DNA of 21,889 bases from a virus: the IMG/VR virus record IMGVR_UViG_3300008517_000263, positions 1 to 21,889 of that record; one strand, 5' to 3'. The notes below the pieces were generated by a model that had not been told where the DNA came from, made no database searches, and worked only from the letters and a program-made list of their open reading frames with translations. This document shows positions 2,504 to 19,532 of the stretch, piece by piece. Made by a program: the position numbers and the translations under genes. Each line of letters begins with the position of its first letter. The stretch's first letter is position 1.

Positions 2504-2833
2504 CTAGCTAATACCTTTAGTTACATCAAACCCAAAACTTGCCACGCTTGTCTTAGCAGTATCCCCACTCCCATCAACAACTGTAACTTCTCCAGGATAC
2601 CAACCTTCAACTGGACTAGACGGAAGGTTGTAGTAATAATCATAAGTACCAGTATTCACACCATCTTTTGTCATGTCTTGAGCAGTGACAACTTTAGTGC
2701 CATCCTTATCTGCAACAGTTACCTTAATTGAAGTTGTTGGGTCTACCAAGTCCCCAGTCTTAGGGTCATAAACTAAAACTCGTATCCAGACTGTTGAAGG
2801 ACTAATAAATTTAGTTACAATCTCTATACTCAT
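2504..2833 (-). CDS. Ig-like beta-sandwich phage protein, 109 residues
   Basis: The protein alternates short hydrophobic strands with polar turns throughout: VWIRVLVYDPKTG near the start, then IKVTVADKDGT, GTYDYYYNLP and a final SFGFDVT strand. This is the pattern of a single immunoglobulin-like or bacterial Ig domain, common as an accessory domain on phage virions. There is no signal peptide, cysteine or membrane helix. The ATG shares its A with the TAA of the repeat-protein gene upstream (TAATG), and GGGAGG lies five bases upstream, so translation is probably coupled. It sits between two fibre-like genes and is probably a virion surface or tail protein. The fold is inferred from pattern only; the exact role is unknown. 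Confidence 0.6.
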   Translation of the reverse strand: MSIEIVTKFISPSTVWIRVLVYDPKTGDLVDPTTSIKVTVADKDGTKVVTAQDMTKDGVNTGTYDYYYNLPSSPVEGWYPGEVTVVDGSGDTAKTSVASFGFDVTKGIS

Positions 2834-4104
2834 TACTTCCTCCCAAAGGTTCTTACTATAATATCTCTATATTGAGCTATTCTCATTATAACACTTCTGT
2901 AAAGGGATGTCTTTATTTTGATATTTCTGTATGGGCTAGTTGTAACAACAATGCTCAGATACTTTCCTACAGTAACATAGGTTGCTTCTGCAATTCCCTT
3001 TAAGCCTAATAAGGCTGTCTTTACTCTGGTAAAAGTTATTGTTCTTGATGCATTTGCTAGAAGCCCTAGTAAAGCAATCTTGGTTCTGTTATAAGAAATG
3101 GCTCTAAAACTTTCATGGAAATTCTCACCATAGAGACTCGAGGTTTTATTATCTGAAAAAATATAAGTCGTTTCATTATCTACTATGCATCGGTCTCCAG
3201 GAACAAAATCAAACCAGTATCCAACACCTTCAGTATCTACTGATATATACCCAGAAGACCAGTAAATCCCAATGTAATCACCAGTTTCAATTGCTAAGGA
3301 AACACTAAACCTTTGTTTACTGCCAGCAGTTACAATACCTATTGTAGCAGCAGAACGACATTTTAATGTATTCCCATTAGTCTTATAAAATATTCCGACC
3401 TTGACACCCCCCATAGTCTGTGCAGCAAATATCTCTACAGCTACTATCTTCCCTGAGCCATTGGCTGTTTTATCACCAGCAATACGAGTATATCCAGAAC
3501 CATCAGAACCAACACGTTCTTTTGCCTCAGACCCTACATTTATTAACTTAGCACCTGTATTAAGCTCCAATAATGCAGTAGAGCTTCTGCTCAAAGAAAT
3601 GGCTCTTGACGCAATTCCCTTCAAGCCTAGCAAAGCCACTTTTGCCCTAGTAAGAGCTATACTCTTTGTTGCAGTTGCTTTTAGACCAAGCAAAGCTATA
3701 TCTGCTCTTGCGAAGACTGTATCCCTCGTTGCAGTTGCCTTCAAGTCCAAATAGGCAGTAGCTTCCTTAATGTAGTGATGGAATGTATCCATTGAGCAGA
3801 TTGTTTTCAAACCTAATGAAGCTACATCTGCTCTTGTAATAGAGATTACTCTGCTTGCAATTCCTTTTAGTCCTAATAGAGCTTCATCACTTCTTGAAAG
3901 AGCTATAGTTCGTGACTTTAGCCCTAATAGTCCTAACAAAGATGTGTCGGAACGAGTTAGTTGTATTGCTCTGGAATAAGAATCCAACAAGCCTAATAAG
4001 GCTGTGCCACTGCGAGTATATTCTTGGGCTGCTACATCAAGAAGTATAAAGTCTCCAATCTCCTGGAGTAAGCCATCACCAGTTTCTTGAAGTAATTTAG
4101 CCAT
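2833..4104 (-). CDS. Repeat-rich phage tail or fibre protein, 423 residues
   Basis: The N-terminus, MAKLLQETGDGLLQEIGD, is a doubled LLQE-x-GD element of a kind often seen in phage tail proteins. Residues 31-181 hold eight copies of a 20-residue repeat, with an [AS]LLGL core at residues 35, 55, 75, 95, 117, 137, 157 and 177, each followed by a basic S/T-R turn. A beta-rich insert with no repeats follows (about 190-338), looking like a compact carbohydrate-binding or jelly-roll domain. Two more repeats have cores at 344 and 364. Residues 381-420 form four decapeptides of the form x-Y-[LR]-x-I-x-[VI]-x-T-x. ATG with upstream spacing of 12 bases from the previous gene. The repeats suggest a fibrous or stacked-helix/beta architecture. 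A tail-associated location is inferred from neighbours. Confidence 0.65.
   Translation of the reverse strand: MAKLLQETGDGLLQEIGDFILLDVAAQEYTRSGTALLGLLDSYSRAIQLTRSDTSLLGLLGLKSRTIALSRSDEALLGLKGIASRVISITRADVASLGLKTICSMDTFHHYIKEATAYLDLKATATRDTVFARADIALLGLKATATKSIALTRAKVALLGLKGIASRAISLSRSSTALLELNTGAKLINVGSEAKERVGSDGSGYTRIAGDKTANGSGKIVAVEIFAAQTMGGVKVGIFYKTNGNTLKCRSAATIGIVTAGSKQRFSVSLAIETGDYIGIYWSSGYISVDTEGVGYWFDFVPGDRCIVDNETTYIFSDNKTSSLYGENFHESFRAISYNRTKIALLGLLANASRTITFTRVKTALLGLKGIAEATYVTVGKYLSIVVTTSPYRNIKIKTSLYRSVIMRIAQYRDIIVRTFGRK
2845..2964 (-). repeat. Coding tandem repeat, four 30-base units (decapeptide)
   Basis: Four consecutive decapeptides end the repeat protein: KYLSIVVTTS, PYRNIKIKTS, LYRSVIMRIA and QYRDIIVRTF. 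Tyrosine is fixed at position 2 and isoleucine or valine at positions 5 and 7. The alternating hydrophobic pattern fits beta strands or a small beta helix. Confidence 0.75.
3562..4014 (-). repeat. Coding tandem repeat, eight 60-base units (20-residue repeat)
   Basis: Eight units encode an [AS]LLGL core with a period of 20 residues (one spacer is 22). DNA units are diverged but recognisable, for example repeated versions of the codons for ALLGLKGIASR. Two further units lie at 2992-3087, after an unrelated 150-residue insert. Confidence 0.8.
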
Positions 4105-5816: not shown

Positions 5817-6016
5817 TATTCCTTCTTATGTACTGACTTTTGCCCTAGTTTATAGCCCCCATAACCAGTTACCATCCCCACTAAAGAAGCTATTCCCGAA
5901 GTTAGAAGTATTCCATTATGCCCATGATGAATAGCTATAGCTAACAGGAAAGTTACAAAACCTCCAAACAACATTATAACATGAAGAATGGAAATTTCCC
6001 CTCTCTGTGAGTTCAT
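5816..6016 (-). CDS. Small two-helix membrane protein, holin-like, 66 residues
   Basis: After a short polar N-terminus (MNSQRGE), two hydrophobic segments are visible: about residues 9-27 (ISILHVIMLFGGFVTFLLA) and about 35-55 (GILLTSGIASLVGMVTGYG), separated by a histidine-rich HHGHNG turn. The C-terminus is basic (KSVHKKE). Size, two helices and a charged tail match small phage holins, which permeabilise the inner membrane for lysis. I chose the ATG at 6014-6016, which overlaps the preceding TGA as TGATG and is seven bases from GGAGG; a GTG one codon earlier is also possible. No endolysin is adjacent, which weakens the holin call; it could be another small virion or membrane protein. Confidence 0.6.
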   Translation of the reverse strand: MNSQRGEISILHVIMLFGGFVTFLLAIAIHHGHNGILLTSGIASLVGMVTGYGGYKLGQKSVHKKE

Positions 6017-6201
6017 CACTTTTCCTCCCCTGGGACAGTACCTACCCCAGTTTTATCCTTAACCATCCCATAACACATACCCTTAGCTTCATCTGGGGTC
6101 TTACCAGCTCTTATTTCTGTAGCGATACAGGCTGAGATAGCAGCTTTAACCTGTGCCTCACCACTACTCTTGTCTAAAGCTTCAACTTCTGGATTAGGCA
6201 T
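6016..6201 (-). CDS. Small helical phage protein with paired-cysteine helical motif, 61 residues
   Basis: Residues about 16-46 read SACIATEIRAGKTPDEAKGM followed by CYGMV. The pattern C-I-x(6)-G-K-[ST]-x-D-x-A-x-x-x-CY is one I recognise from phage and metagenomic virion proteins, where it occurs as a small helix-turn-helix appendage, often at the ends of head-module proteins. Here it is free-standing. The two cysteines (25 and 43) could form a disulfide but have no zinc-finger spacing. GGAGGT is five bases upstream of ATG. It is coupled by a 1-base overlap (TGATG) to the holin-like gene. Function unknown. Confidence 0.6.
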   Translation of the reverse strand: MPNPEVEALDKSSGEAQVKAAISACIATEIRAGKTPDEAKGMCYGMVKDKTGVGTVPGEEK

Positions 6202-6211
6202 ATTTACCTCC

Positions 6212-6703
6212 TTATGCTACTCTTATTCCCAATACATACACTATGCAAGCAGGTTGTGTAGCACCAGTTTCAGTTTGGACTCTTAGTTTCCCTGCAGCAT
6301 CTATCTCATGATTAGCATCATCAATAGTAGCTGCTCTTACTATAGCCTTATCCGAACCACTGACATCCATACCATCAGTAATAGCATCAGCAGTGTTCTT
6401 AATAGTAAGAATAGTAGAGGCTACACCAGCACCAGTTAGAACAACCCAAGCATCAACAATGCGTGTCTTGTGGGTCAAGACAACATCTGTACTTGCAAGA
6501 GCACCAGCTTCAAGTTCAATTACATGAAGTACTGGAATTCCACCAACTACTCCTTCAGAGGCTACATTGTTTACATTAGCACCATTGAGAACTGGCACAT
6601 CAGCTGCTCTTATAAGTTCAGTAAGAGCTATTTTGAAAGGAGCACTAGACTCAGGTGTTACTGTAATATATCCAGCCTCAAATTCAATCCCCTTAATGTT
6701 CAT
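6212..6703 (-). CDS. Beta-rich phage virion protein, 163 residues
   Basis: After a 60-residue N-terminal part, the protein has strands in the order GGIPVLHVIELEAGA, DVVLTHKTRIVDAWVVLTGAG, ILTIKNTADAITDGM, AIVRAATIDD and KLRVQTETGATQPACIVYVLG. I recognise this core from small proteins encoded just downstream of capsid genes in many phages, where it may form a head-fibre or decoration domain. Only one cysteine and no enzyme motif are present. GGGAGG lies four bases before ATG. A strong hairpin (6725-6751) lies upstream, between this gene and the preceding decoration-like gene. Virion location is likely; the exact position on the particle is inferred. Confidence 0.6.
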   Translation of the reverse strand: MNIKGIEFEAGYITVTPESSAPFKIALTELIRAADVPVLNGANVNNVASEGVVGGIPVLHVIELEAGALASTDVVLTHKTRIVDAWVVLTGAGVASTILTIKNTADAITDGMDVSGSDKAIVRAATIDDANHEIDAAGKLRVQTETGATQPACIVYVLGIRVA

Positions 6704-6724
6704 AAGTCCTCCCTTTTATTGGTT

Positions 6725-6751
6725 GGGCAGGAGGCTGTTTACCCCCTGCCC
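6725..6751 (-). other. GC-rich intercistronic hairpin downstream of the decoration gene
   Basis: GGGCAGG (6725-6731) pairs perfectly with CCTGCCC (6745-6751); inside, two more G-C pairs follow an A/C mismatch, leaving a 7-base loop. It lies in the 79-base gap between the 229-residue and 163-residue genes. On the minus strand it is followed by an A-rich stretch, not a T-run. It may be an mRNA-stabilising or processing element that separates abundant capsid messages from downstream ones. Confidence 0.55.
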
Positions 6752-6782
6752 TAAAACTAGCAAGGTGTTTCCTGTACTAATC

Positions 6783-7501: not shown

Positions 7502-8479
7502 CTATGTGGAAGCATCAGGTATAATTCCATACATCCTACCTATGCTTCGTGGGTCAACAGTCGCCAAACCTAAGTTCCAATCAACCCTGGTTCGGAACAC
7601 TGGTTTGCTCTCTAGCTCACCAAGGTCACGCACTTCAAGAGGGTACTCCTGAATACCCCAAGTCATGTCACCTATACCAAGCTTGATTGCATAGATGCTG
7701 GTGTGTTCATCACTAGCAGCCTCACCATTCACATCCTCAGTGGACAAGATGATGTCAGTAAGCTGGTCAGCTTTTGTACCAATATCAACGAGCCGAGCTC
7801 CCAGGTACAGGTCTATAACTCGGTCAAACATATCTTTGGTAGTGTCAAGCAACTTCTCCCTTCTGAGTAGTGACCTCACAGCCAGAAGTGTTTTAGAATT
7901 CATAAGCAGGTAATCAGGTTTATGTCCCTTGATGTTATAGATTAGCTTATCCAAACTCTCAAGGAACAGGTGAGACTCAGCCGAAGACAGTAACATACCA
8001 TCACCAGCAGTAGTTCCACATAGAATCTTTTGGTTGGTGAAACCAGCAGCATAGACAGCATCAACCCTCTCCTTCAAACCCTTGAATTCCTCAGGGTCAG
8101 AAGTAGGGTCTCCATTGATGAATTTGTCATTGAAGCTGTAGGCAACTGCCTTGAGCATAAGAGTTTGCTGAATTGCTCTGGCATCAGCAATAGTATTCTT
8201 AGCTCTGGCAATGGCGATGTCAGTATCAATATCCGCTCCCATAAGGGAGATATTCTCAGTCGCTTGTTCAAAATGACCAGTTGACTCAGTATACCCTTCA
8301 TTAACTTTCCTGAAGCCAACACTAGGCAGGTCTTTTACCTTCACTACTGAGGTAGCCAACTGACCAATAGTTTCCCAAGGGACTATCTCCATCAGGTTGG
8401 ATTCCATTATAAGCGTGTCAATGACTGATTTCCGCAAAGGGTCAGTTTCAATCTTTGACAGTTCTGCTAAAGTCCACAT
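7502..8479 (-). CDS. Major capsid protein, HK97-fold type, 325 residues
   Basis: The protein forms the phage head shell. The start MWTLAELSKIETDPLRKSVI, the NEGYTESTGHFEQATENISL segment (residues about 60-80), the DTDIAIARA and KAVAYSFNDKFINGD segments (about 87-125) and the KGHKPDYLLMNSKTL segment (about 185-200) match the N-arm, E-loop and backbone helix order of a HK97-type capsid family I recognise in environmental phages. The C-terminal FRTRVDWNLGLATVDPRSI is also typical. Length is normal for the family without a fused protease domain. GGAGG lies nine bases upstream. It follows the scaffold gene by 18 bases, and a consensus promoter (9016-9045) lies upstream of both. No separate prohead protease is visible nearby. 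Confidence 0.88.
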   Translation of the reverse strand: MWTLAELSKIETDPLRKSVIDTLIMESNLMEIVPWETIGQLATSVVKVKDLPSVGFRKVNEGYTESTGHFEQATENISLMGADIDTDIAIARAKNTIADARAIQQTLMLKAVAYSFNDKFINGDPTSDPEEFKGLKERVDAVYAAGFTNQKILCGTTAGDGMLLSSAESHLFLESLDKLIYNIKGHKPDYLLMNSKTLLAVRSLLRREKLLDTTKDMFDRVIDLYLGARLVDIGTKADQLTDIILSTEDVNGEAASDEHTSIYAIKLGIGDMTWGIQEYPLEVRDLGELESKPVFRTRVDWNLGLATVDPRSIGRMYGIIPDAST

Positions 8480-8497: not shown

Positions 8498-8974
8498 TTA
8501 TTTCTTTTCATAAGCTGTACGAGCTAAGTCCATTGGACTTCTGCCCTGTAAGTTTCCACCTCCACCTCCACCTCCAAGGTCAGGTAGGGGTTTTCTGTCC
8601 CCAATATATTTAAGTGCCACTCGCATCTCTGTCTCTGACATGGCTTTAATCTCTTCCTCAGGAACACCCTTAGCTTTAAGGGAATCCCTCAGCTCAGAAG
8701 CAGACTTCTCTTTGATTTTGTTGAGTTCTTCAGAGGACTCTTGGTTCTTGGTTTTCTCCTTCTCAAGTTCCTCCTTAATCTTGTTGAACTCTTCTGGATT
8801 GGGGGCATTTTTCAGTTGCTCTTCAAGGTTTGTGACCTTTCCCCTTTCGGTAGTTAGCTTGCCACCAAGACTTTCCTTGATGCCAACATACTTACTCCAA
8901 GGGACTGTTTCTGGGTACTTTCCATCCTTATCAGGCTGGATTTCCTCCACATCGTCTTTACCTTCTTCAGACAT
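8498..8974 (-). CDS. Capsid scaffolding-like protein, 158 residues
   Basis: The protein is short, very acidic at the N-terminus and strongly helical: residues about 40-115 are a continuous charged coiled coil rich in E and K. A seven-glycine linker (near residue 135) joins this to a C-terminal basic helix, SPMDLARTAYEKK, the usual form of a capsid-binding tail. This organisation, and the position immediately before the major capsid gene, are those of phage scaffold proteins that shape the procapsid and then leave. GGAGG lies eleven bases upstream of the ATG. It is the first gene after the strongest promoter in the window. No protease domain is fused. Confidence 0.8.
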   Translation of the reverse strand: MSEEGKDDVEEIQPDKDGKYPETVPWSKYVGIKESLGGKLTTERGKVTNLEEQLKNAPNPEEFNKIKEELEKEKTKNQESSEELNKIKEKSASELRDSLKAKGVPEEEIKAMSETEMRVALKYIGDRKPLPDLGGGGGGGNLQGRSPMDLARTAYEKK

Positions 8975-9049: not shown

Positions 9050-12000
9050 TCATTCTGGTAATAGTTTATAGAAGTCAGGTATTTCAGGTAAACCCTTACT
9101 ATGCCAACGTGGATGCTCATTTAATTTAAACATCACAAACAACTTCTCTATTTCAGCCTTACCCTCAACAGACCTTGGGGCTTGAACTTTCTCCCAAAAG
9201 ACTAAGGAAGCATCAACATAAGGATTAGCTATTCTGTAGTCTGCCCTATCCTTCTCAGGAGTATTGTAGTACTCAGTCCACATGTACTCACAATGTACCC
9301 TGAATCTTGCTAGCTCTGGAAAGGCTAGGGACTCATCCATTACTTGCCATAAGGGTAACTCTTCCTTTTTAATCATGAGTAGGAAGTCTGTCCCATAATC
9401 ACGAAGGGTATACCACTTACCTTCGTCACTTGTTCCTAGTTTCCCCTCCATCTCATCAAGCTCTTTGAGGACAGCATCAGTTGTTGGCTCTCCCCCTTCA
9501 AGTCTTGTACGCCTGTATTCCTCACCCCCCCTTGTAGAATAGACACTGACAAAGATAGCTTTAAGCCATTCATCTGGCTCTACGTCAAACATCTTATCCC
9601 CTGCTACATCTCTTACTTCACCATCAATTAAAGCTGTCATACCTTCAAGAGTTCGTACAGCCTGTACACCTCCAGGAAGGTGATACCTGATGAACCAATT
9701 TCTCAGGTCAGTCCAATCACCATATTCAAAGTAGATACCTCTTGCCCTGTTGAACTCACTGACATATCTTAGAGGCATAGGATAATTCCAAGGATTGTAA
9801 GGCTCTACACCAGCCATTAGAATAGACACCATAGGAATAAAGGAAGTTGGTTGCCAAGGTTTCCTGTCAATACCAAGCTCTCCTATAATATTGAAAACAT
9901 AGATTGCTGCAAAGAAGGAAAGAAAATTTCTCATCCTGTTACGAGCCAAAGCTTTACCTTCTGCAGTGTTAGCAGCTACAGTCTCATAAGTACCAGCTTT
10001 AAGGAACTTGAATCCTAACATTTCTGTTTGGGAGTTCATAGCCTCAAAACAGAACGTTTGGAAGGGGAAAAGTGCTCCTATCTCCTTTGACCTAAGAACA
10101 CCAGGAACATTTTGAAGATTATACATAGACTGGGTTTTAGCTCCAGCATCAGAAGCAAAGTCAATCAAATCCCTACCTGTAAGACCAAGTTGCTGACCTT
10201 TAAGATAACCTGCATAACAAGATAGACCAGTGACATTATTCTCTATTATTCTGGTAAGGAAGTTCATAGCTTCTTCCACTGTTTCAAGATTTGACCTTTG
10301 TATCTTTTCTGTCTTAGATATAGTTGTCCCTAAGTCCTGATAGAGAAGAGAACCTATACGCCTTTGTTTAATAATATGGGAATACATATTCTCCTGTACT
10401 AAACTTTTCACATCTTTACTCCATAAGAACTTAGTAGCTGCAATAGTATTCCTCATACCATATTGCTCCACAGTTAAGGCTATTGAAGATGTCTGAACAA
10501 ACAAGTTCCATGACCAGTTCAATGGAAAGACAGCAGTAGTCAGTCTTCTTCTAAGCCAGATTATTGGTCTCATTGCAAAGACAAAAGGAGTCTTATGAAT
10601 AGCCTTAGAAACAAAGTTCATTGAACCTGCATAGCTTTCTGATACCCAATCCATCACCCACCTAGCAAAGCGTGGAGCACTCTTCTCAATAAGGGGAATA
10701 TAGGATTTGGTATTCTGGATTACAGGTGTAAAGAACATATCCTTGCAAGCTGCCTCTGAATAGTCAGCAAATAACTTCCTTACATCCTTAATCTTAGTAT
10801 AGCCTTGTAAACCTCCTTCTCTTTCCTTAGCATGAGGGACAAAAGGCTCTGAAGGTTTAATAAAATCTGGTGTAGTAGCAGGGTCTCTAACAAAATCTGG
10901 TCTCAGCTTACCATCATAGAAGACACCTATCATCTTACTCCAGATGTTAGGCTCATAAGCCCACTTAACATAGCTATCATGGTAAGGAATAGGCTCTAAG
11001 CCATACTTAACCCTGAAAGCATTCTGTTGGGTAACTAGCTCATCCCAAACCATCCTAAGTCCCTTAGCCCAATCAATCATAACATTCTGGTTAGCCTTAC
11101 TGTAGCTACCAATAATACTCTGTATCTCCTCCATTGCCATCAGGTCTTCATTACTTACACCAACAAACTCTTGTTTAAAGTTATTCATTAAGCCCCAAGT
11201 AGCCTCATTGAACTTCTTCTTTGCTGCAGGACTAAGAAAGCCAGGTCTTAGCTTATCAAGCCCAGTAGACCTTTCTAATTTAAGATATTCACCAATATTC
11301 ACACCATGAGTATTTAGATAAGCCATAGTTGCTCTCTCAGCTACACGAAGTATTCTCCTTCTAGCTATACCACCAAACTTACCCCAATCAGCATAGCCAA
11401 AGGCTCTGATAGTATCCATCCGATTGAAGTTACCTTCACGAGTATCTTGGAACTTAGCATCAGAAATATTCTCAGTTATGTATTTTTCATTGTATTCTTT
11501 TATATTGTCAGGCATCATTCTAAGGGCTTCATTCAAATCCCCATGATGCCAAGCTGCAGTGAAAGCCCTATCAATATCATTCTCAACATCTGCATAGAAG
11601 AAGTGTTTATCCATGTCCCTCACAGCTTTTTCGGAACTTCTGGCTATCTCATCTAAGGTAACAGTACTTTCTGAATAGCCTTTAACAGTCTCTGATTGTT
11701 CCTGGGCTACTTCCATATCTATTTCCTCAGCACTGAGTATGCTCTCTAAGTCAGCAGTAGTAACTATTTCAATTGTTGGGTGTCTCCTAAGCCATTCTTG
11801 TGCTGCAAAATCCTGAGCACCATTCTCCATTAGGGAGTCAGGAAGCCTGTTTTCCAAAAGTATACGTTCTTTATTGTGTATATCCATTTGAGCTATCAAT
11901 TGTTCATCACTAACATTTGATAATAAATTGCGAGCTTCTGTATCTGCTGCTTTTTCCTTTTCAGTTTGTCTTGTTATTGCTGCTGAATCCTTTTTATTTA

Positions 12001-15000
12001 CAACAAGGTCAAACTCTTTGGTAGACATCCTCACACCTTCCTGCAAAGCATGCAACTTTTCAGCTAACCCTTCATCCATTAGAACTTCTGTTGAGGACTC
12101 AACTACATCCTCCTTTACAAAGGACTTGACCTCAGGAGCTGGAGTATTCATAAGGGTCTCCCTTTGTTCCTTAGTGAACTGTCCCCAACCTGCATTAACC
12201 ATATCTGCAGATATTCCTGCCTGGTGAATCCAAGCTGCCCTCTCAGCTAAAGAAACTGTATTCCACTTAGCTTGTGTCATACTAGCTTCAAAAGCACGAC
12301 CATAGAGAGCCTCTATACCTCTAAGATGTTCAACTGTTATAATTTCTCCCCTCCCTGAGAAGAAAGAACCAAAATCACTGGCAAACATTTCCTCTGTCTC
12401 TTTGAACCATTCACTATAACCATAAAGGTAATCTTTCTCAAACTCTCCTTTATATTCAGGATGCTCCTCTAACATCTTCCCTATCTCAACTTTTATCTTG
12501 GCTACAACTTCTTTACCTGCATAAACTTCCCATAAGACATAGTTTCCCTCATTTATATCTATAGAGGAAAGGCTATGAGCTATCTCATGATAGAGAGTAT
12601 AATCAGAAACCTCAGTAGAACGAAACTCAAGAGCTTTCTGTCTTGGGTTAAACTGAGCTTCATATAGTTTTAATCTAGCATTTACTTTGACCTCTCTAAC
12701 ATCTATCCTTACAACATCTTGTAGGTTCACAAGAGCTGCTTTTATCCTTTCTCTGAGTTCTAGAGGAACATTCTTATGAAATTTAATATCCTCTACAAGA
12801 GTAATCTTGGTAGGAACAACCTTCTCACCTGCAAGAACTCTTTCTCTGGTAGTTACAGCCTCCTCAAGCTTCTTGAGGTTTGATTTGAAAGGTTCTATTC
12901 CTTGCTGTGCTAAAGCATAGGCATTATCAATGGAGATGAAACCCATCTTGCCATCTTTAGTCATAACAGCAACAGTACCCTCAGTAAGAGTTAGAGAACC
13001 ATCTTTCTCTCTCACTAGAGAATCTAAATTCTCTACATCAAATATCAAAGCATAACCCTTCAAATCAGAAGTTGGTTTGAGAGACACTTGCTGTTTCCCT
13101 TCTACAGTTCTTAGGATTCCAACTTCAAGAGCTTTCCCTTTAACCACCTTAGTTACAGGAATTTCCTTCAACCTACCATTAATTTGGTTTCTCCTGTCTT
13201 TAAGACCTGTAATAAGAGTTCTAAGATTGCTCATATTGTTCTGGGCTTCCTCTACCTCCCAAGCTGTTACCCCTTCCCTCTTTGCCCTCTCTGAATGAAT
13301 ATTATAGGAATCTTGGGCAGATTTAATTTGGAGGTCAATATCTTTCAGTTTATTCTGGAGAAAAACTATCTCTTTGTCATAGACCCTTGCTGCAGGATTC
13401 TTAATCTGCTTATTAAAAGTTCTTTCCCTCACTATATCTACCACTTGAGTCAATAAACCTTTTCCTTCCTCAGTTTCTGAAAATTTATCCATAGCTATAG
13501 CAGTAGAATATTTATTAGCTTGGGATTCTGAAGCACCTACGTTCAAAGCCTCTATATTAGCTTCAGCCTTATCCCTTTCAAACTTTGTCTTTTGGTCAGG
13601 AGTCATGTAATTCTGAGTCTCATAAAGACTGGTACTTATCATATCACCACCTATACCCATTCCAGCCCCCATAAGAAAGCCTAAAGATGTAGCAAGTTGC
13701 ATTTCTGAATCAAATCTCCAAGGATGGGGGTCTCCTTTAGCCTCACGAACAAGAGCTGTCTGGTATGACTCTTCAAAACCTTGAGTAGTACCCTCTACCA
13801 TAACTTTACCACCAACCCAAGTTACACGAAGAAAACCCTTAGAAATAGCACTAGAAGCAGTTTTAAAAGGAGTGGGAATAGGAGCTAGAGCTACTGCTAT
13901 CTGAGCAGAATCAAGACCAGCTAACTTCATATTACCCCAGAACACATGGTCAGCCCCCTCTCTTGAATACAGTATATCTCCTGTTTCTACCTTGAGTTCA
14001 TCATAAGCTCCACCTGCTTCCAAACCAGATTCCATCAACCTTCCTGTAATACCTGCTGTGGTACTACCAAGCAAGTGAGATAAAATAGTCCTACCAGAAG
14101 CCCCTATACCAATACGAGATAGGGATGTTAGGGGAACAGCAGCCCCAGCTCTCCAACCGATAAGAGCAACAAACATTGCAGTAAGGGCAAAGGGAAGTGT
14201 CTTTGTAGCTTGCTCAAGAATAAACATCCATCTTCCAGTTGACCAATATTTTGGGTTATATAACCATTCCCAAGTAAACTCATTAGCATCAATCCTTGGA
14301 ACATAAGCTACTTGCATCCTCCCTGCCTCATTATGAAGAACATCAGCTACTCCACCTTCACCTAACCATCTTTCAACAGCCCCACCAGTCATAGCAAGAA
14401 CATCCCCCCAACCTGCATATAAAGCTCTCTGCAGTCTTGTTGGGAAATCACCTTCTGGCATCTCTCCTTTCCATAATTGCCTATACATCTCCAACCAGTC
14501 ATCATCTATTTTATCAGGAGGGAGTCTCCCCCCCATTTGATATTTAGAAATCCATTCTTTCAAAGCTGAATCACTGCCATCACAAAGTTGGAGTGCTTTT
14601 ATAGCCTCATCGGAAATATGAGGACTATTAAGAACAAAACGAACTCTATCCCCATAGTTATCAGAAGTAGCAGTTGGCTGGTCTGCTATAAATTCATCAG
14701 CAACTGTCATGGCAATCCATCTTCCTGTCTTTGGGTCTATATTAGCTATCTTCATTCCTTCATAATAGAATCCATCTTCCCTCTTTGTTACAGGAATGGA
14801 AGAACCATCTTCAGTCGTCATAACATAAGGAGTTCCCTCAGCCTTTCTCTCCCCCATCATAACCTCTTCAAGAAGCTTAATATCATCTTCAATATTACCA
14901 GTTGGGAGAATACCCCTTTCCCACAACTCCTTCCATATCTTATCTTGAGCTAGTTGCTCTGGACTTACATCTATATCTTTTGGAGGATAAGCCTGTTGTA

Positions 15001-15673
15001 AAGCAGTACCTAGTTGCTCTACATTTTTGGAGAAAGCTACTGTTGACATGATGAACCTTGGGTCTACAGAGGGAGCTATGATGTTAAACTGAGCCATTAG
15101 CTCCTCTAGGGTTTCAGGAGATGGAAAAGGAGCACCTTCAGGTATACCCTCTTTAGCTAACTTTGTAGCATAATCAAGAAACCACTGTCGTTCATCATCA
15201 GTAAGATTAAGGCTGTCTGCTCTCCCAGGATTAAGGTCTGGAATTAGCTCATAAAGTTGAGCCTCTTCCCCAGTAAGCTTACCCAATAAGGATAAGGCTT
15301 CCATGTGTTCCTTGATTCTTGGTAAGTTCTTAGCTATCTGCTCCCTTCTTTGGAGTTCCCTTAGCTCTGATTCTGTCTGGGCTTTCATCCTGTCAGCCAT
15401 CTCAGGAGTAAAACCTACCTCAAGCCAAGGAGTAAATCTCTCAAGAGTTCTGGCTCTTTCCGTACCAAACCATTCAGGAAGATAAGCTACCTCACCTACT
15501 CTTCTCAAACCTCTTTCCCAAGCTGGTTTAGCTTCCCAAGCCTCAGGAGCAAAGTGAGTACCATAAGCCTCATGAAGAGCTTCAACTTCCTTCTTGAGTT
15601 GTTTCCTTCTCTCAATATCGGCTTCTGAATACAAGTCAGGGAACTTAGCTATTGGTTCTTTATTATCAGCCAT
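9050..15673 (-). CDS. Giant polyvalent virion protein with HExxH metalloprotease motif, 2207 residues
   Basis: Residues 1-430 are mostly helical and charged. A hydrophobic region around 485-515, more small-residue/glycine stretches to about 560, and another near 655-675 could insert in membranes. Residues about 765-836 are a coiled coil. Residues about 955-1110 look like a zinc metalloprotease: H1029-E-I-A-H1033 plus a downstream ETEEMFASDF with E1095 as a likely third ligand. The C-terminal 600 residues (helical, with WNLFVQTSSIAL and ALFPFQTF segments and a hydrophobic helix near 1910-1930) resemble the conserved tail of large polyvalent phage proteins. It lies between portal and scaffold, where ejected internal head proteins can be encoded. 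I infer that it is packaged and enters the cell with the DNA, perhaps helping to form a channel. AGAGG is seven bases before ATG. Confidence 0.7.
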   Translation of the reverse strand: MADNKEPIAKFPDLYSEADIERRKQLKKEVEALHEAYGTHFAPEAWEAKPAWERGLRRVGEVAYLPEWFGTERARTLERFTPWLEVGFTPEMADRMKAQTESELRELQRREQIAKNLPRIKEHMEALSLLGKLTGEEAQLYELIPDLNPGRADSLNLTDDERQWFLDYATKLAKEGIPEGAPFPSPETLEELMAQFNIIAPSVDPRFIMSTVAFSKNVEQLGTALQQAYPPKDIDVSPEQLAQDKIWKELWERGILPTGNIEDDIKLLEEVMMGERKAEGTPYVMTTEDGSSIPVTKREDGFYYEGMKIANIDPKTGRWIAMTVADEFIADQPTATSDNYGDRVRFVLNSPHISDEAIKALQLCDGSDSALKEWISKYQMGGRLPPDKIDDDWLEMYRQLWKGEMPEGDFPTRLQRALYAGWGDVLAMTGGAVERWLGEGGVADVLHNEAGRMQVAYVPRIDANEFTWEWLYNPKYWSTGRWMFILEQATKTLPFALTAMFVALIGWRAGAAVPLTSLSRIGIGASGRTILSHLLGSTTAGITGRLMESGLEAGGAYDELKVETGDILYSREGADHVFWGNMKLAGLDSAQIAVALAPIPTPFKTASSAISKGFLRVTWVGGKVMVEGTTQGFEESYQTALVREAKGDPHPWRFDSEMQLATSLGFLMGAGMGIGGDMISTSLYETQNYMTPDQKTKFERDKAEANIEALNVGASESQANKYSTAIAMDKFSETEEGKGLLTQVVDIVRERTFNKQIKNPAARVYDKEIVFLQNKLKDIDLQIKSAQDSYNIHSERAKREGVTAWEVEEAQNNMSNLRTLITGLKDRRNQINGRLKEIPVTKVVKGKALEVGILRTVEGKQQVSLKPTSDLKGYALIFDVENLDSLVREKDGSLTLTEGTVAVMTKDGKMGFISIDNAYALAQQGIEPFKSNLKKLEEAVTTRERVLAGEKVVPTKITLVEDIKFHKNVPLELRERIKAALVNLQDVVRIDVREVKVNARLKLYEAQFNPRQKALEFRSTEVSDYTLYHEIAHSLSSIDINEGNYVLWEVYAGKEVVAKIKVEIGKMLEEHPEYKGEFEKDYLYGYSEWFKETEEMFASDFGSFFSGRGEIITVEHLRGIEALYGRAFEASMTQAKWNTVSLAERAAWIHQAGISADMVNAGWGQFTKEQRETLMNTPAPEVKSFVKEDVVESSTEVLMDEGLAEKLHALQEGVRMSTKEFDLVVNKKDSAAITRQTEKEKAADTEARNLLSNVSDEQLIAQMDIHNKERILLENRLPDSLMENGAQDFAAQEWLRRHPTIEIVTTADLESILSAEEIDMEVAQEQSETVKGYSESTVTLDEIARSSEKAVRDMDKHFFYADVENDIDRAFTAAWHHGDLNEALRMMPDNIKEYNEKYITENISDAKFQDTREGNFNRMDTIRAFGYADWGKFGGIARRRILRVAERATMAYLNTHGVNIGEYLKLERSTGLDKLRPGFLSPAAKKKFNEATWGLMNNFKQEFVGVSNEDLMAMEEIQSIIGSYSKANQNVMIDWAKGLRMVWDELVTQQNAFRVKYGLEPIPYHDSYVKWAYEPNIWSKMIGVFYDGKLRPDFVRDPATTPDFIKPSEPFVPHAKEREGGLQGYTKIKDVRKLFADYSEAACKDMFFTPVIQNTKSYIPLIEKSAPRFARWVMDWVSESYAGSMNFVSKAIHKTPFVFAMRPIIWLRRRLTTAVFPLNWSWNLFVQTSSIALTVEQYGMRNTIAATKFLWSKDVKSLVQENMYSHIIKQRRIGSLLYQDLGTTISKTEKIQRSNLETVEEAMNFLTRIIENNVTGLSCYAGYLKGQQLGLTGRDLIDFASDAGAKTQSMYNLQNVPGVLRSKEIGALFPFQTFCFEAMNSQTEMLGFKFLKAGTYETVAANTAEGKALARNRMRNFLSFFAAIYVFNIIGELGIDRKPWQPTSFIPMVSILMAGVEPYNPWNYPMPLRYVSEFNRARGIYFEYGDWTDLRNWFIRYHLPGGVQAVRTLEGMTALIDGEVRDVAGDKMFDVEPDEWLKAIFVSVYSTRGGEEYRRTRLEGGEPTTDAVLKELDEMEGKLGTSDEGKWYTLRDYGTDFLLMIKKEELPLWQVMDESLAFPELARFRVHCEYMWTEYYNTPEKDRADYRIANPYVDASLVFWEKVQAPRSVEGKAEIEKLFVMFKLNEHPRWHSKGLPEIPDFYKLLPE

Positions 15674-15677
15674 CTTA

Positions 15678-17426
15678 TTACCTCTTTATCCTTCCACTAC
15701 CTACCATACCACGAAGCTGCTGAGGAGTAAATCCCCCTCTTGTTTCTGGAGGGGCTATCTCAGGTCTGGAAGTAGCTCTTGGTTTTGGACTCCCTGCTTC
15801 TCTCTCAGCTTCTATTCTAGGGGATTCCTCTGGTCTACCCTGTCCTGCTGGGGGGACACCAAGTTGACCTTCAAGGGCTTGAGCTGCTTTCTTAAACAAC
15901 TCTGCTTGCCTTAAATCCCCTCTCTTCTCCAGATAGTCTGCATGAACATAATAGCTAGCTATTAGCTCTACATTCTGGGTCATTGGATGGTCTAAGGCTC
16001 TATCAAGAGCTTTCCTTCTAAGGATAGCCTGTGGGTCTTTAACTTTATAAATCTCACTGAGCAAAGTTGCTTTATCAAAGTCCTCTCTGACCATACCCCC
16101 AATAGTCCCTCTCTCTAACCAATCTTTAGGTGTAGCTACATCTGATTCTACTTCCATTGTAACATTCTCAGGAATATCTACAGGTGATAGCTTCTCAAGG
16201 AACTTTCCTCTGATGTTAAAGACACGCTTGGATGTTTTTAACCTTGACAACCAGAACTCATCCCCTCCTGATATGATAAGGTGTTTACCATCCATGTAGG
16301 GGTAAAGGATTTGGTTGGCACTGGATGTAGCTAGTAAGCTTAGAGCATATCCAGGCTGTCCTTCTACCATACCATAGACAGCATCATTAAAACTACCCTT
16401 CTGGATTTCTCTCCTCATTTCTACCAGGTGAGCTTGCAACTCTATTGGGATTGCTGCAGGAGGTAGCCTTGAGAGACCTGCCTCTCCTGGGGCATAGTGG
16501 AACAAAGCCCCTCTTTCCCTAAGCTGTTCAGGAGTTGCATTGGGACTCCCACTATGTTCCTGTGTTATTGGTTGTGAAGTATCACGAAGTATCTGTGACA
16601 TTTCTGACTTCCACTTGTTAAAGTGGTTGCCTATGTTTGCATTGACTTCAAAGATTCCTCTACCCTTTAACTCTTTCCAAGATTCCCCCAACCTCTTCCT
16701 TTGAGTTAAGCTTCCTTTATCAGGAAAGCCTCCTACTGCTCCTACAACAAGTTTCATATCTGGTCTATCTACCCAACCAGTCACATCCTGATTGTCAATG
16801 AGTATCATATTGTAGAGAGCCTCATTAGTTTGATAGAAGTAATCATCAAGTGTCACAAAACCATAAGGGGAACTCACAGGAGAGGTATAGCTCCAACCAT
16901 TGTCTTGAGCTTTTATCTTAGCTTCTTCCTCTGTTATTTTGTAGGAATGGACACAAGACACTGTTCTATTATTAACAAATCTAGGATAGGTATCTGCTGG
17001 ATTCCATACTTGAGCTTTGAGAAGACCAGTCTCCTTATCAAAAGCATAGACCATACTATACCAACCAAGAACTAGCAAGAAGAAGGCTGCATCATCAATA
17101 AAAGTTTGCTCACCTCCTGCCTGTCTCTCCTTATCTATCTGCTTCCACATGAACTCACAACCCCTATTGACTCTTGCCCTTCTATCTAGCTCTATTGCTG
17201 ACTCATCTGCTATTGAGATAGAATGAGATAACTCACCCTTAGTCAGAAGGTAATGAGCCATATTATAAAAAGTTTGGGGTTCATTACTAGCGTAACTTTC
17301 CATCTTCTTAGTAGCTAGTAAGTCTACAAGAAGAAGAATCTCATACCAGTCACGAAACTTTTTGTTACGCTTTTCCCAGTATCTCTTTAGCTTTGCAATA
17401 TCATTAATGACTTCCTGTTGCTCCAT
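15678..17426 (-). CDS. Portal protein, 582 residues
   Basis: The portal is the dodecameric ring at the head vertex through which DNA is packaged and ejected. Support: position straight after the large terminase, expected length, and portal-like segments such as the N-terminal RNKKFRDWYEILLLVD helix, DDAAFFLLVLGWYSMVYAFD, VWNPADTYPRFVNN (the region around the clip and wing) and a long helical part that includes PIELQAHLVEMRREIQKGSF, a likely stem or crown helix. The last 70 residues are rich in P, E, R and G and probably disordered; no MuF domain is fused. The ATG is preceded by GGAGG at four bases; the gene begins nine bases after the terminase stop. I recognise this as portal-like by context and pattern, not by a single catalytic motif. 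Confidence 0.85.
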   Translation of the reverse strand: MEQQEVINDIAKLKRYWEKRNKKFRDWYEILLLVDLLATKKMESYASNEPQTFYNMAHYLLTKGELSHSISIADESAIELDRRARVNRGCEFMWKQIDKERQAGGEQTFIDDAAFFLLVLGWYSMVYAFDKETGLLKAQVWNPADTYPRFVNNRTVSCVHSYKITEEEAKIKAQDNGWSYTSPVSSPYGFVTLDDYFYQTNEALYNMILIDNQDVTGWVDRPDMKLVVGAVGGFPDKGSLTQRKRLGESWKELKGRGIFEVNANIGNHFNKWKSEMSQILRDTSQPITQEHSGSPNATPEQLRERGALFHYAPGEAGLSRLPPAAIPIELQAHLVEMRREIQKGSFNDAVYGMVEGQPGYALSLLATSSANQILYPYMDGKHLIISGGDEFWLSRLKTSKRVFNIRGKFLEKLSPVDIPENVTMEVESDVATPKDWLERGTIGGMVREDFDKATLLSEIYKVKDPQAILRRKALDRALDHPMTQNVELIASYYVHADYLEKRGDLRQAELFKKAAQALEGQLGVPPAGQGRPEESPRIEAEREAGSPKPRATSRPEIAPPETRGGFTPQQLRGMVGSGRIKR

Positions 17427-17435
17427 ATTGCCTCC

Positions 17436-18947
17436 TTACCAAGCCCAACCTGGGACAGAACCTCTGAAACCTCTTGACCCCCCTGATACACTCTTGGCTG
17501 CTACTGCAATCATAAAAGCCATAGCCAAGTCATCAAAGGTCTGGGCTGTTGGTTTATATTTGATAAACCTAAAACTCCTCATTTGCCTAACAAGATTAAC
17601 ATCCCATAAGTTTACAGTTGGTAGCATAATCTTAGCCCTATTCATCATATACTGCCTGGTTGAGTCCATTGTCCACCAACCAAGTTTACTGGTAATCTTA
17701 CCAGAAAGGAAATCCCTTTCCCTATATATGTTAGGATAGTTAGCAAGACCCACTCCCTCATGTGTCAAGTCTACCCCTCCAGCTAGGGAAGAAAGCACTG
17801 CATAACCAGTAAAGTTCCTTTCCACTACCAGTTCTGCCATATTATACCATGTTCCCATCTTTTTGAGAAGTTCTGCAAAAGTATGGGGTTCTATCCTTGC
17901 CTGAAATGTAGCACAAACTCTCCAATCATCATCAAGAACAGCAGCAGCACTGTAGCTACCCCCTGGTGCTCCTGCACTGGTATCTACCCCAATAGTATAA
18001 TTTTTACCCTTTTCGGGTGCTATCCAATAAACCCAACCTTCGGGATGTCTTGTTCCTTCATAACAATTCTGGGCTAAGTTATTCAAAATAAACTGGTCAA
18101 AAACAGGGTCTCCAATAGTAATGAAACAAGACACTTCATCTTCTGGGAACTCCTGCCAAAAGAGACCCCCTTTCTCAGCAATCTTCCAGCGTCTCCACCT
18201 TATCTGGGCTTCAATAAGATGATGTTTCTCTATAAGTTCAACCTCTTCCCCAGTAAAAGTTAGCTCCCCCCTATCTTCGGGTAGGGAATATTCTGAACCT
18301 ATTGGTATCTGGTAGTCTTCTGTCCACCACCAAGGAAAGAAGAAAGGTTTATAAGGAGACTTCCCTTCCCTAGCTTGTGTCCATCTCTCAAAGAAAAGAT
18401 TATCTTCACCATTAGGAGTTGCTTCAATATTAAGCTCACCAGATAAAGGCACTGCATCCTCCACACCTGTCAAAACTTTCCCTGGGTCTTCATAAAAAGG
18501 TAGCTCAGAAAGAAGAGCCTTTCTAATCATGTCACCCCTACCAAAAGCTCTTGCCCCCGCTGTCCCTATGTAGACGGAACTATGATATTCAGGGAAGGTC
18601 TTCTCAGACCTGCTTTCTGCTCCTATCTCGGGTTTAGGAGGTTGCATAGTATCATAGAAGAATTGGACTTTATCAAGTAGTCGCTGAGTTGACCTTGTTT
18701 CATGAGAGACTACTGCAGAATAAGTATGAGGAACAGTAATAGAATCCATGAGCATATCAGCTAGAATACTAGAGGTCATTCCTCCTTGACGATGTTTAAG
18801 GACTATGTTCCTATTGGATTTATAAGTATGGAAGTACCTTTGCATCCTATTGAGCCTGAAAGGTACTACCTGACCTTCTTTATTATCTATGTAGAGAAGG
18901 TCTCCAATTAACCCTATTCTATCTACCTTTGATTGGGTTGTTACCAT
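17436..18947 (-). CDS. terL: Terminase large subunit, 503 residues
   Basis: This is the DNA-packaging motor ATPase and nuclease. The ATPase half has a Walker A-like K51-H-R-Q-G-G-M-T-S59 and a Walker B-like ALLSE148LPFYED with E148 as likely catalytic glutamate. The coupling motif ATPNG is at 176-180. The C-terminal RNase H-like nuclease half has D322 in YTIGVDTSAG, E376 in LVVERN, and D472-D473 in TFDDLAMAF, which gives the expected acidic metal-binding triad. Length is normal. The ATG is used because an AGGA-type ribosome binding site lies about eight bases upstream, though it is weaker than others here. It lies downstream of the small subunit, with a possible small basic gene between them. 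Confidence 0.93.
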   Translation of the reverse strand: MVTTQSKVDRIGLIGDLLYIDNKEGQVVPFRLNRMQRYFHTYKSNRNIVLKHRQGGMTSSILADMLMDSITVPHTYSAVVSHETRSTQRLLDKVQFFYDTMQPPKPEIGAESRSEKTFPEYHSSVYIGTAGARAFGRGDMIRKALLSELPFYEDPGKVLTGVEDAVPLSGELNIEATPNGEDNLFFERWTQAREGKSPYKPFFFPWWWTEDYQIPIGSEYSLPEDRGELTFTGEEVELIEKHHLIEAQIRWRRWKIAEKGGLFWQEFPEDEVSCFITIGDPVFDQFILNNLAQNCYEGTRHPEGWVYWIAPEKGKNYTIGVDTSAGAPGGSYSAAAVLDDDWRVCATFQARIEPHTFAELLKKMGTWYNMAELVVERNFTGYAVLSSLAGGVDLTHEGVGLANYPNIYRERDFLSGKITSKLGWWTMDSTRQYMMNRAKIMLPTVNLWDVNLVRQMRSFRFIKYKPTAQTFDDLAMAFMIAVAAKSVSGGSRGFRGSVPGWAW

Positions 18948-19063
18948 CCTTTTATCCTGTACTTCCGTTTGAGCCTATGCAAAGGTTTATTTATCCTTCG
19001 GGAGAGGTGGGCTCTACGAATATTAGTCCTGCTGCTGACTAACTTCTTCAGGGATTGCTTCAC
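18941..19063 (-). CDS. Possible small basic protein between terminase genes, 40 residues
   Basis: A GTG (19061-19063) with GAGGGGG a few bases upstream opens a frame inside the end of the small terminase gene, crosses the 75-base gap and stops at TAA (18941-18943) just inside the large terminase start. The predicted peptide begins MKQSLKKLVSS and ends LKRKYRIKGW, with 15 of 40 residues lysine or arginine. Overlap at both ends suggests coupling to both terminase genes, and it fills what would otherwise be the second-longest gap in a compact operon. It could be a nucleic-acid-binding accessory to packaging, or a chance reading frame. Confidence 0.4.
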   Translation of the reverse strand: MKQSLKKLVSSRTNIRRAHLSRRINKPLHRLKRKYRIKGW

Positions 19064-19532
19064 TTTCCCCCTCAGTCAAATGATAAGGTACTCCCTCAAT
19101 TTCTTCCGGTTGCTGAGTACCCAATTGCCCTATCCTCTCTTGCCAAGTCAATGATAAAGCTTTTGGTTGGAAATCAAGGTCTGAAATTAGTTTATCATAA
19201 ACAACCTTGGCTAGATTTGTCCTTAGCAAGTCATAGTTACCAGATTCTATCTCTGCTTTTATACGACTGATAATATCAGCTTCAAGAAGGACTGCCTCTA
19301 ACTGGTTGTCTCTCCTCAGTAATTTTATAGCTTCTTGTTTATATTCCTGACCAAAATCATCAATTTGCCTGTGAATATTAACAAAAACCTCTTCTTTGCT
19401 CCAATTATTGAAAGTACCTTTCTTGATACCAACCAGCTTTCTGGCTGCTTCTGGGTCTACATGGGCAATCCTTAACAGTATATATTTCCTTCTTATCCCT
19501 GTAAGGGATTTTATATCATCATACAGGCTCAT
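19023..19532 (-). CDS. terS: Terminase small subunit-like HTH protein, 169 residues
   Basis: Position directly before the large terminase, size and architecture fit the small terminase, which recognises viral DNA and feeds it to the large subunit. Residues about 26-46 (DPEAARKLVGIKKGTFNNWS) form a helix-turn-helix. The middle (about 50-125) is helical and probably oligomerises; the acidic, Gln-rich C-terminus ending EEVSQQQD would bind the large subunit. There is no ribosome binding site before the ATG (19530-19532). Instead a sigma-70 promoter puts the expected first transcribed base on the A of the ATG, so the message may be leaderless. No later ATG or GTG with a ribosome binding site is visible. 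Confidence 0.75.
   Translation of the reverse strand: MSLYDDIKSLTGIRRKYILLRIAHVDPEAARKLVGIKKGTFNNWSKEEVFVNIHRQIDDFGQEYKQEAIKLLRRDNQLEAVLLEADIISRIKAEIESGNYDLLRTNLAKVVYDKLISDLDFQPKALSLTWQERIGQLGTQQPEEIEGVPYHLTEGESEAIPEEVSQQQD

What the first reader, a model, noticed from the sequence alone, without database searches (positions are those of the whole stretch)
9050..15673. A 2207-residue metalloprotease-bearing protein between portal and scaffold
One gene takes up 30 percent of the window. It combines a long helical N-terminus, membrane-prone segments, a coiled coil, an HExxH site (1029-1033) with a downstream E1095, and a C-terminal region like that of large polyvalent phage proteins. Such proteins are known in phages and are thought to be packaged and delivered with DNA. 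This combination, and its position in the head operon without a MuF domain, suggest an ejected protein that could cleave a host or virion target. No separate prohead protease is visible nearby, so it could also act in head maturation.
Basis: partly seen in the sequence, partly recalled or inferred. Interest (0 to 1): 0.7.

Follow-up and report, generated by a model that had tools for sequence, protein, structure and literature searches.

The report
Giant phage protein carrying swappable protease
This phage gene makes a giant, probably virus-packaged protein whose two conserved ends flank a slot that holds a zinc protease here and an unrelated ADP-ribosylating enzyme in its nearest relative, which suggests that phages use such proteins to deliver interchangeable enzymes into the bacteria they infect.

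Summary
In detail: 9050-15673 (-) is one 2207-residue ORF with HEIAH at 1029-1033 and E1095. The zincin call is well supported. Among eight related domains (17-25% identity) the only invariant columns are H1029, E1030, H1033 and E1095. AlphaFold2 gives a helix/three-strand/HExxH-helix/Glu-helix core at 955-1106, but a PDB fold search is not significant (best E 0.15, zincins on top).

Relatives were found only in metagenomic phages, in the same slot (portal, giant, scaffold, capsid). Residues 1-330 and 2051-2207 are universal in the clade; 845-1299 is a cassette. The closest full-length relative, L050, keeps both arms (29% and 36% identity) but carries an ADP-ribosyltransferase (ART-PolyVal) there. 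Only 8 of 17 giants have HExxH, always in the slot, and cargo changes as freely as chance on the portal tree. The C-arm fold matches large polyvalent phage proteins (E 5e-12), although no Pfam or PHROG model does.

Best reading: a polyvalent, virion-delivered protein whose zincin is exchangeable effector cargo. Self-processing is the main rival. Prohead maturation is unlikely, because relatives with the same capsid and scaffold lack the motif. Packaging, ejection and proteolysis are inferred, not shown.

The parts
9050..15673 (-). 2207-residue giant protein gene (P0001)
   Evidence: homologous giants in the same slot in over 30 contigs
14684..15673 (-). residues 1-330: N-terminal domain universal in this phage clade, unknown fold
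   Evidence: A2 alignment of 14, profile hits in over 30 relatives; no PDB match
13142..14683 (-). residues 331-844: N-arm body (type shared with L016, L020, L050, L081) with Gly/Ala-rich, membrane-prone stretch and a coiled-coil-like end
14117..14197 (-). hydrophobic segment, residues 493-519
   Evidence: hydropathy, similar segment in 15 of 17 relatives
11777..13141 (-). residues 845-1299: exchangeable cassette holding the zincin
   Evidence: WIN 8-844 and 1300-2207 align to L050 17-849 and 1129-2059, the middle does not
12356..12811 (-). zincin-like core, residues 955-1106
   Evidence: AlphaFold2 pLDDT mostly 64-92 with zincin order of elements; alignment A4
12575..12589 (-). HEIAH, residues 1029-1033 (presumed zinc ligands H1029, H1033; presumed catalytic E1030)
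   Evidence: invariant in 8 of 8 related domains, coordinates checked
12389..12391 (-). E1095, presumed third zinc ligand
   Evidence: invariant in 8 of 8, on the second C-terminal helix of the model
9515..11776 (-). residues 1300-2053: C-arm, all-helical, shared with giant proteins of many other uncultivated phages
   Evidence: fold match to polyvalent proteins
9863..9928 (-). hydrophobic segment, residues 1916-1937
   Evidence: similar segment about 260-320 residues from the C-terminus in 15 of 17 relatives
9053..9523 (-). residues 2051-2207: C-terminal tail, universal in the clade across both C-arm types
15678..17426 (-). putative portal (582 aa)
   Evidence: position; 44-67% identical homologues between TerL and the giant; no significant profile hit to a known portal
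8498..8974 (-). putative scaffold (158 aa)
   Evidence: position; homologue in L010 weakly matches phrog_194
7502..8479 (-). major capsid protein
   Evidence: phrog_212 E 1.7e-57, Pfam GP7 E 6.1e-15
17436..18947 (-). terminase large subunit
   Evidence: phrog_2 E 2.3e-17
19023..19532 (-). putative terminase small subunit
   Evidence: position and homologues; no family hit

Best explanation
The gene encodes a phage-type polyvalent protein made late, packaged in the head near the portal, and ejected with the DNA. Its conserved N-terminal domain and C-terminal tail dock it to virion proteins of this phage clade. Its long helical, membrane-prone arms carry it through the envelope. The middle is a cargo slot that here holds a zincin-type metallopeptidase (zinc bound by H1029, H1033 and E1095; base E1030), which after entry cleaves a host protein. 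Shown here: domain boundaries, cargo exchange, catalytic-residue conservation, fold similarity of the C-arm to polyvalent proteins. Inferred: packaging, docking, ejection, membrane passage, zinc binding, proteolysis and its host target.
For: Only H1029, E1030, H1033 and E1095 are invariant among 8 zincin domains; zincin-like model. The closest full-length relative L050 has the same arms but ART-PolyVal in the slot (31.4 bits, cut-off 31.2); L004 has ART-PolyVal at 39 bits. Cargo on the portal tree needs 7 changes, shuffled mean 7.2. The slot is that of the minor capsid gene in isolates with homologous capsid proteins. C-arm fold matches polyvalent proteins, top hit an ART-PolyVal protein, E 4.6e-12. 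No tape-measure-like gene seen in two 44-45 kb relatives, so a short tail is likely. Zincin and ART are both reported cargo of packaged phage proteins (PMC5512222, PMC5576092).
Against: No direct evidence that the protein is in virions. No host or target known; no isolate has a detectable homologue. PDB fold search of the zincin model is not significant (best E 0.15). The domain does not match Pfam MPTase-PolyVal even at E 10. About half of the relatives have no recognised enzyme in the slot, so the slot need not always hold an effector.
Confidence: 0.6

Rival explanations
1. Same packaged polyvalent protein, but the zincin is a self-processing protease that cuts the giant chain in the head or in the host to free its parts.
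For: Proposed for MPTase domains in polyvalent proteins; P1 DdrB is cut to about 76 kDa before packaging (PMC5512222). The central position would split the chain into two arms of about 900 residues. In L072 the arms are encoded by two overlapping genes, so they can work as separate chains.
Against: Relatives with an ART or nothing known in the slot have no recognised replacement protease in the chain, so cleavage by this domain is not needed for the shared function. N4 vRNAP, which also has a HExxH domain, is packaged uncut (PMC5512222).
Confidence: 0.22
2. The zincin is a prohead maturation protease that trims scaffold or capsid.
For: Position between portal and scaffold. In Streptomyces phage Rowa, whose capsid protein is homologous, the gene in this slot is annotated as head maturation protease.
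Against: Relatives with capsid proteins 60-70% identical and homologous scaffolds lack HExxH (L004, L016, L036). Scaffold is a separate gene and the capsid protein has no long N-terminal extension.
Confidence: 0.06
3. The HExxH domain has lost activity and serves only as a structural spacer.
For: The slot can be nearly empty in relatives such as L043, L053 and L059, so the length is flexible.
Against: The four catalytic positions are the only invariant ones at 17-25% identity, which points to selection on catalysis.
Confidence: 0.06
4. The protein is not packaged; it acts in the producing cell late in infection.
For: No virion data exist; the case for packaging rests on gene position and fold kinship only.
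Against: Head-operon slot conserved in all relatives; fold kinship with proteins thought to be packaged.
Confidence: 0.06

Closest known systems
Polyvalent proteins of phages (Iyer et al. 2017, PMC5512222)
   Same: Giant multidomain protein beside late virion genes; zincin and ART domains as cargo; C-arm fold matches such proteins.
   Different: No Pfam polyvalent domain in the window protein; conserved arms around one internal slot rather than freely permuted domains; N-terminal domain and tail not in Pfam or PHROGs.
N4 virion RNA polymerase gp50 (PMC12633501)
   Same: Giant single-chain ejected protein with a proposed membrane-spanning N-terminus, a central enzyme, a HExxH domain and a large helical C-terminus.
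   Different: No RNA polymerase domain was recognised here; about 2200 rather than 3500 residues; not compared directly.
MuF proteins and MuF toxins (PMC5576092)
   Same: Gene slot next to portal; metallopeptidase and ART cargo.
   Different: No MuF domain; cargo is internal, not C-terminal.
Podovirus ejection proteins, T7 gp14-16 and P22 type (PMC8954989)
   Same: Fast-evolving, mosaic, with membrane segments.
   Different: One giant chain next to the portal; no sequence or PDB fold match.

Membership tests
Zincin metallopeptidase | HExxH plus a downstream Glu on a second helix | tested here: met
   invariant in 8 of 8 related domains
Zincin metallopeptidase | N-terminal helix, three-stranded sheet, two C-terminal helices carrying HExxH and Glu | tested here: met
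   order of elements in the model, pLDDT about 64-92
Zincin metallopeptidase | significant structural match to solved zincins | tested here: inconclusive
   top hits include lethal factor, IrrE, a collagenase and selecase, but best E is 0.15
Zincin metallopeptidase | zinc binding and peptidase activity | not testable with these tools
   needs biochemistry
MPTase-PolyVal (PF18818) | profile match | tested here: not met
   none at E 10
Phage polyvalent proteins | large protein encoded among virion genes of a portal-terminase phage | tested here: met
Phage polyvalent proteins | two or more disparate functional domains in one chain, variable between relatives | tested here: inconclusive
   one recognised enzyme domain plus shared arms here; zincin or ART in relatives. 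Variability is met; two disparate enzymes in one chain were not seen.
Phage polyvalent proteins | kinship of a domain to known polyvalent proteins | tested here: met
   C-arm fold, 56 matches at E<=0.001, several named polyvalent; not by sequence profile
Phage polyvalent proteins | packaged and injected | not testable with these tools
   needs virion proteomics
MuF protein | MuF domain PF04233 | tested here: not met
   no match, controls positive
Podovirus ejection protein (T7/P22) | sequence or fold match to T7/P22 ejection proteins | tested here: not met
   no PDB sequence match; none among C-arm fold hits shown; N-arm fold not tested

The most novel reading that the evidence does not exclude
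A wholly uncultivated phage clade uses one giant ejected protein as a standard delivery vehicle with a fixed internal cargo slot, exchanging effector enzymes (zincin, ADP-ribosyltransferase and unknown ones) between phages while clade-specific ends keep it docked in the virion.
Probability: 0.5. Interest if true: 0.7.

Novelty: new variant of a known kind. Interest (0 to 1): 0.52.

Why it matters
It gives a concrete, testable picture of how phages may deliver enzymes at the moment of infection: conserved arms outside, exchangeable enzyme inside. The natural swap of a protease for an ADP-ribosyltransferase in the same slot argues that the cargo acts on the host rather than in head assembly. It supplies catalytic residues, domain borders and a set of uncharacterised slot contents in which new effectors could be sought.

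Tried and rejected
Direct family searches with the whole protein gave nothing significant: Pfam, PHROGs, PDB, annotated phages and plasmids. A genome-contig scan with the portal alignment found no prophage. A viral scan with the zincin alignment was not possible (no conserved stretch long enough). Prohead protease: rejected because relatives lack the motif. MuF and LPD38 membership: no match (the LPD38 control did not ring, so absence is weak). PDB search of the C-arm model gave no meaningful match. A first family scan failed for wrong frames and was repeated.

Full report
What is there. The ORF at 9050-15673 on the minus strand is real and uninterrupted, 2207 residues, with HEIAH at 1029-1033 and E1095. 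The window is a 21.9 kb fragment of a virus record. Terminase and major capsid protein are identified by profile. Portal and scaffold are assigned chiefly by position and by conserved order in relatives. No library or isolate search with the whole protein gave a significant match.

Relatives. Scans with the capsid protein, the portal, the N-terminal domain and the C-arm gathered over 100 loci, all from uncultivated phages; the one scan of bacterial genomes, with the portal, found none. In the clade defined by the portal, a giant protein follows the portal and precedes scaffold and capsid wherever the contig reaches that far. Capsid and portal are mostly 55-70% identical to those of the window while the giant proteins are about 20-40% identical, as reported for ejection proteins, which vary more than other virion proteins (PMC8954989).

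Anatomy. Residues 1-330 and 2051-2207 are shared by the clade members that reach those ends. Between them the bodies of both arms come in at least two types, which are distributed incongruently with the portal tree. Hydrophobic segments recur in the N-arm and about 260-320 residues before the C-terminus in 15 of 17 members each. The C-arm also occurs in giant proteins of other phages with different partners.

The cassette. The closest full-length relative, L050, aligns to residues 8-844 (29%) and 1300-2207 (36%) but not to 845-1299. In that place it has an ADP-ribosyltransferase of the ART-PolyVal family just above the curated cut-off. L004 has a stronger ART-PolyVal match. Eight of 17 full- or near-full-length giants have HExxH, all in the slot. 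On the portal tree the cargo label needs 7 changes against a shuffled mean of 7.2, so cargo does not follow phage descent detectably. The tree is small, and the 'none' class means only that nothing was recognised.

The zincin. The domains of the window phage, L032, L020, L010, L015, L025, L031 and L022 share exactly four invariant columns: H1029, E1030, H1033, E1095. Pairwise links are significant for some pairs (WIN-L032 7.5e-15, WIN-L020 1.3e-6, L022-L031 4.5e-11) and weak for others. L029 and L100 form a separate HExxH pair next to a DUF3293 match. The AlphaFold2 model has mean pLDDT 58.8 over 356 residues, but most of 955-1106 is at about 64-92 and shows the zincin order of elements. Foldseek against the PDB ranks lethal factor first and also lists IrrE, a collagenase and selecase, none significant. 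That these are zincins is from my own knowledge.

The C-arm. The model of 1380-2207 is almost all-helical, mean pLDDT 72. It has no meaningful PDB match, but it matches 56 predicted viral structures at E<=0.001, led by a protein named PolyVal ADP-ribosyltransferase and including several named large polyvalent protein.

Function. Phage isolates with homologous capsid proteins keep a small minor-capsid or 'maturation protease' gene in this slot. No MuF domain is found in the window or in the tested relatives. Two 44-45 kb relatives show no evident tape-measure gene (judged by size and sequence, not proven). Together with published polyvalent, MuF-toxin and N4 vRNAP cases, the most likely role is a packaged, ejected protein whose internal enzyme is interchangeable. 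Because an ADP-ribosyltransferase can replace the zincin, an effector role on the host is favoured over head maturation; self-processing remains possible.

Limits. No experiment or virion proteome exists. Host and target are unknown. The N-arm fold was not modelled. 'Portal' and 'scaffold' are positional names.

Noticed in passing
L042 3076-5562: Terminase large subunit of 828 aa with a roughly 320-residue insert that begins with Cys and ends HHN before Cys, at the position of window TerL residue 176: looks like an intein. L044 has a similar insert ending HN before Ser.
   Followed up: partly
L072 2787-7277 and 7270-10290: The giant is split into two overlapping genes, N-arm and C-arm, unlike the full-length relatives.
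   Followed up: partly
window 2833-4104: 423-aa protein with repeated ALLGLKG-like units; a homologous ORF in L016 runs to at least 1897 aa.
   Followed up: no
G002 record, reverse strand (L108-L110), ORF 5872-6765 of the reversed sequence: Papain-like cysteine peptidase signature (PVRDQGNCGSCVG) in a relative with a HExxH giant.
   Followed up: no
L123 5756-14911: 3051-aa giant with the same C-arm but HExxH near its C-terminus (2899), a different place for the motif.
   Followed up: no
L029 and L100 giants, cassette region: A second HExxH type next to a DUF3293 match.
   Followed up: partly
L016 giant, about residues 1100-1600: Long stretch without similarity to any other giant and without any Pfam match: unknown content.
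   Followed up: no
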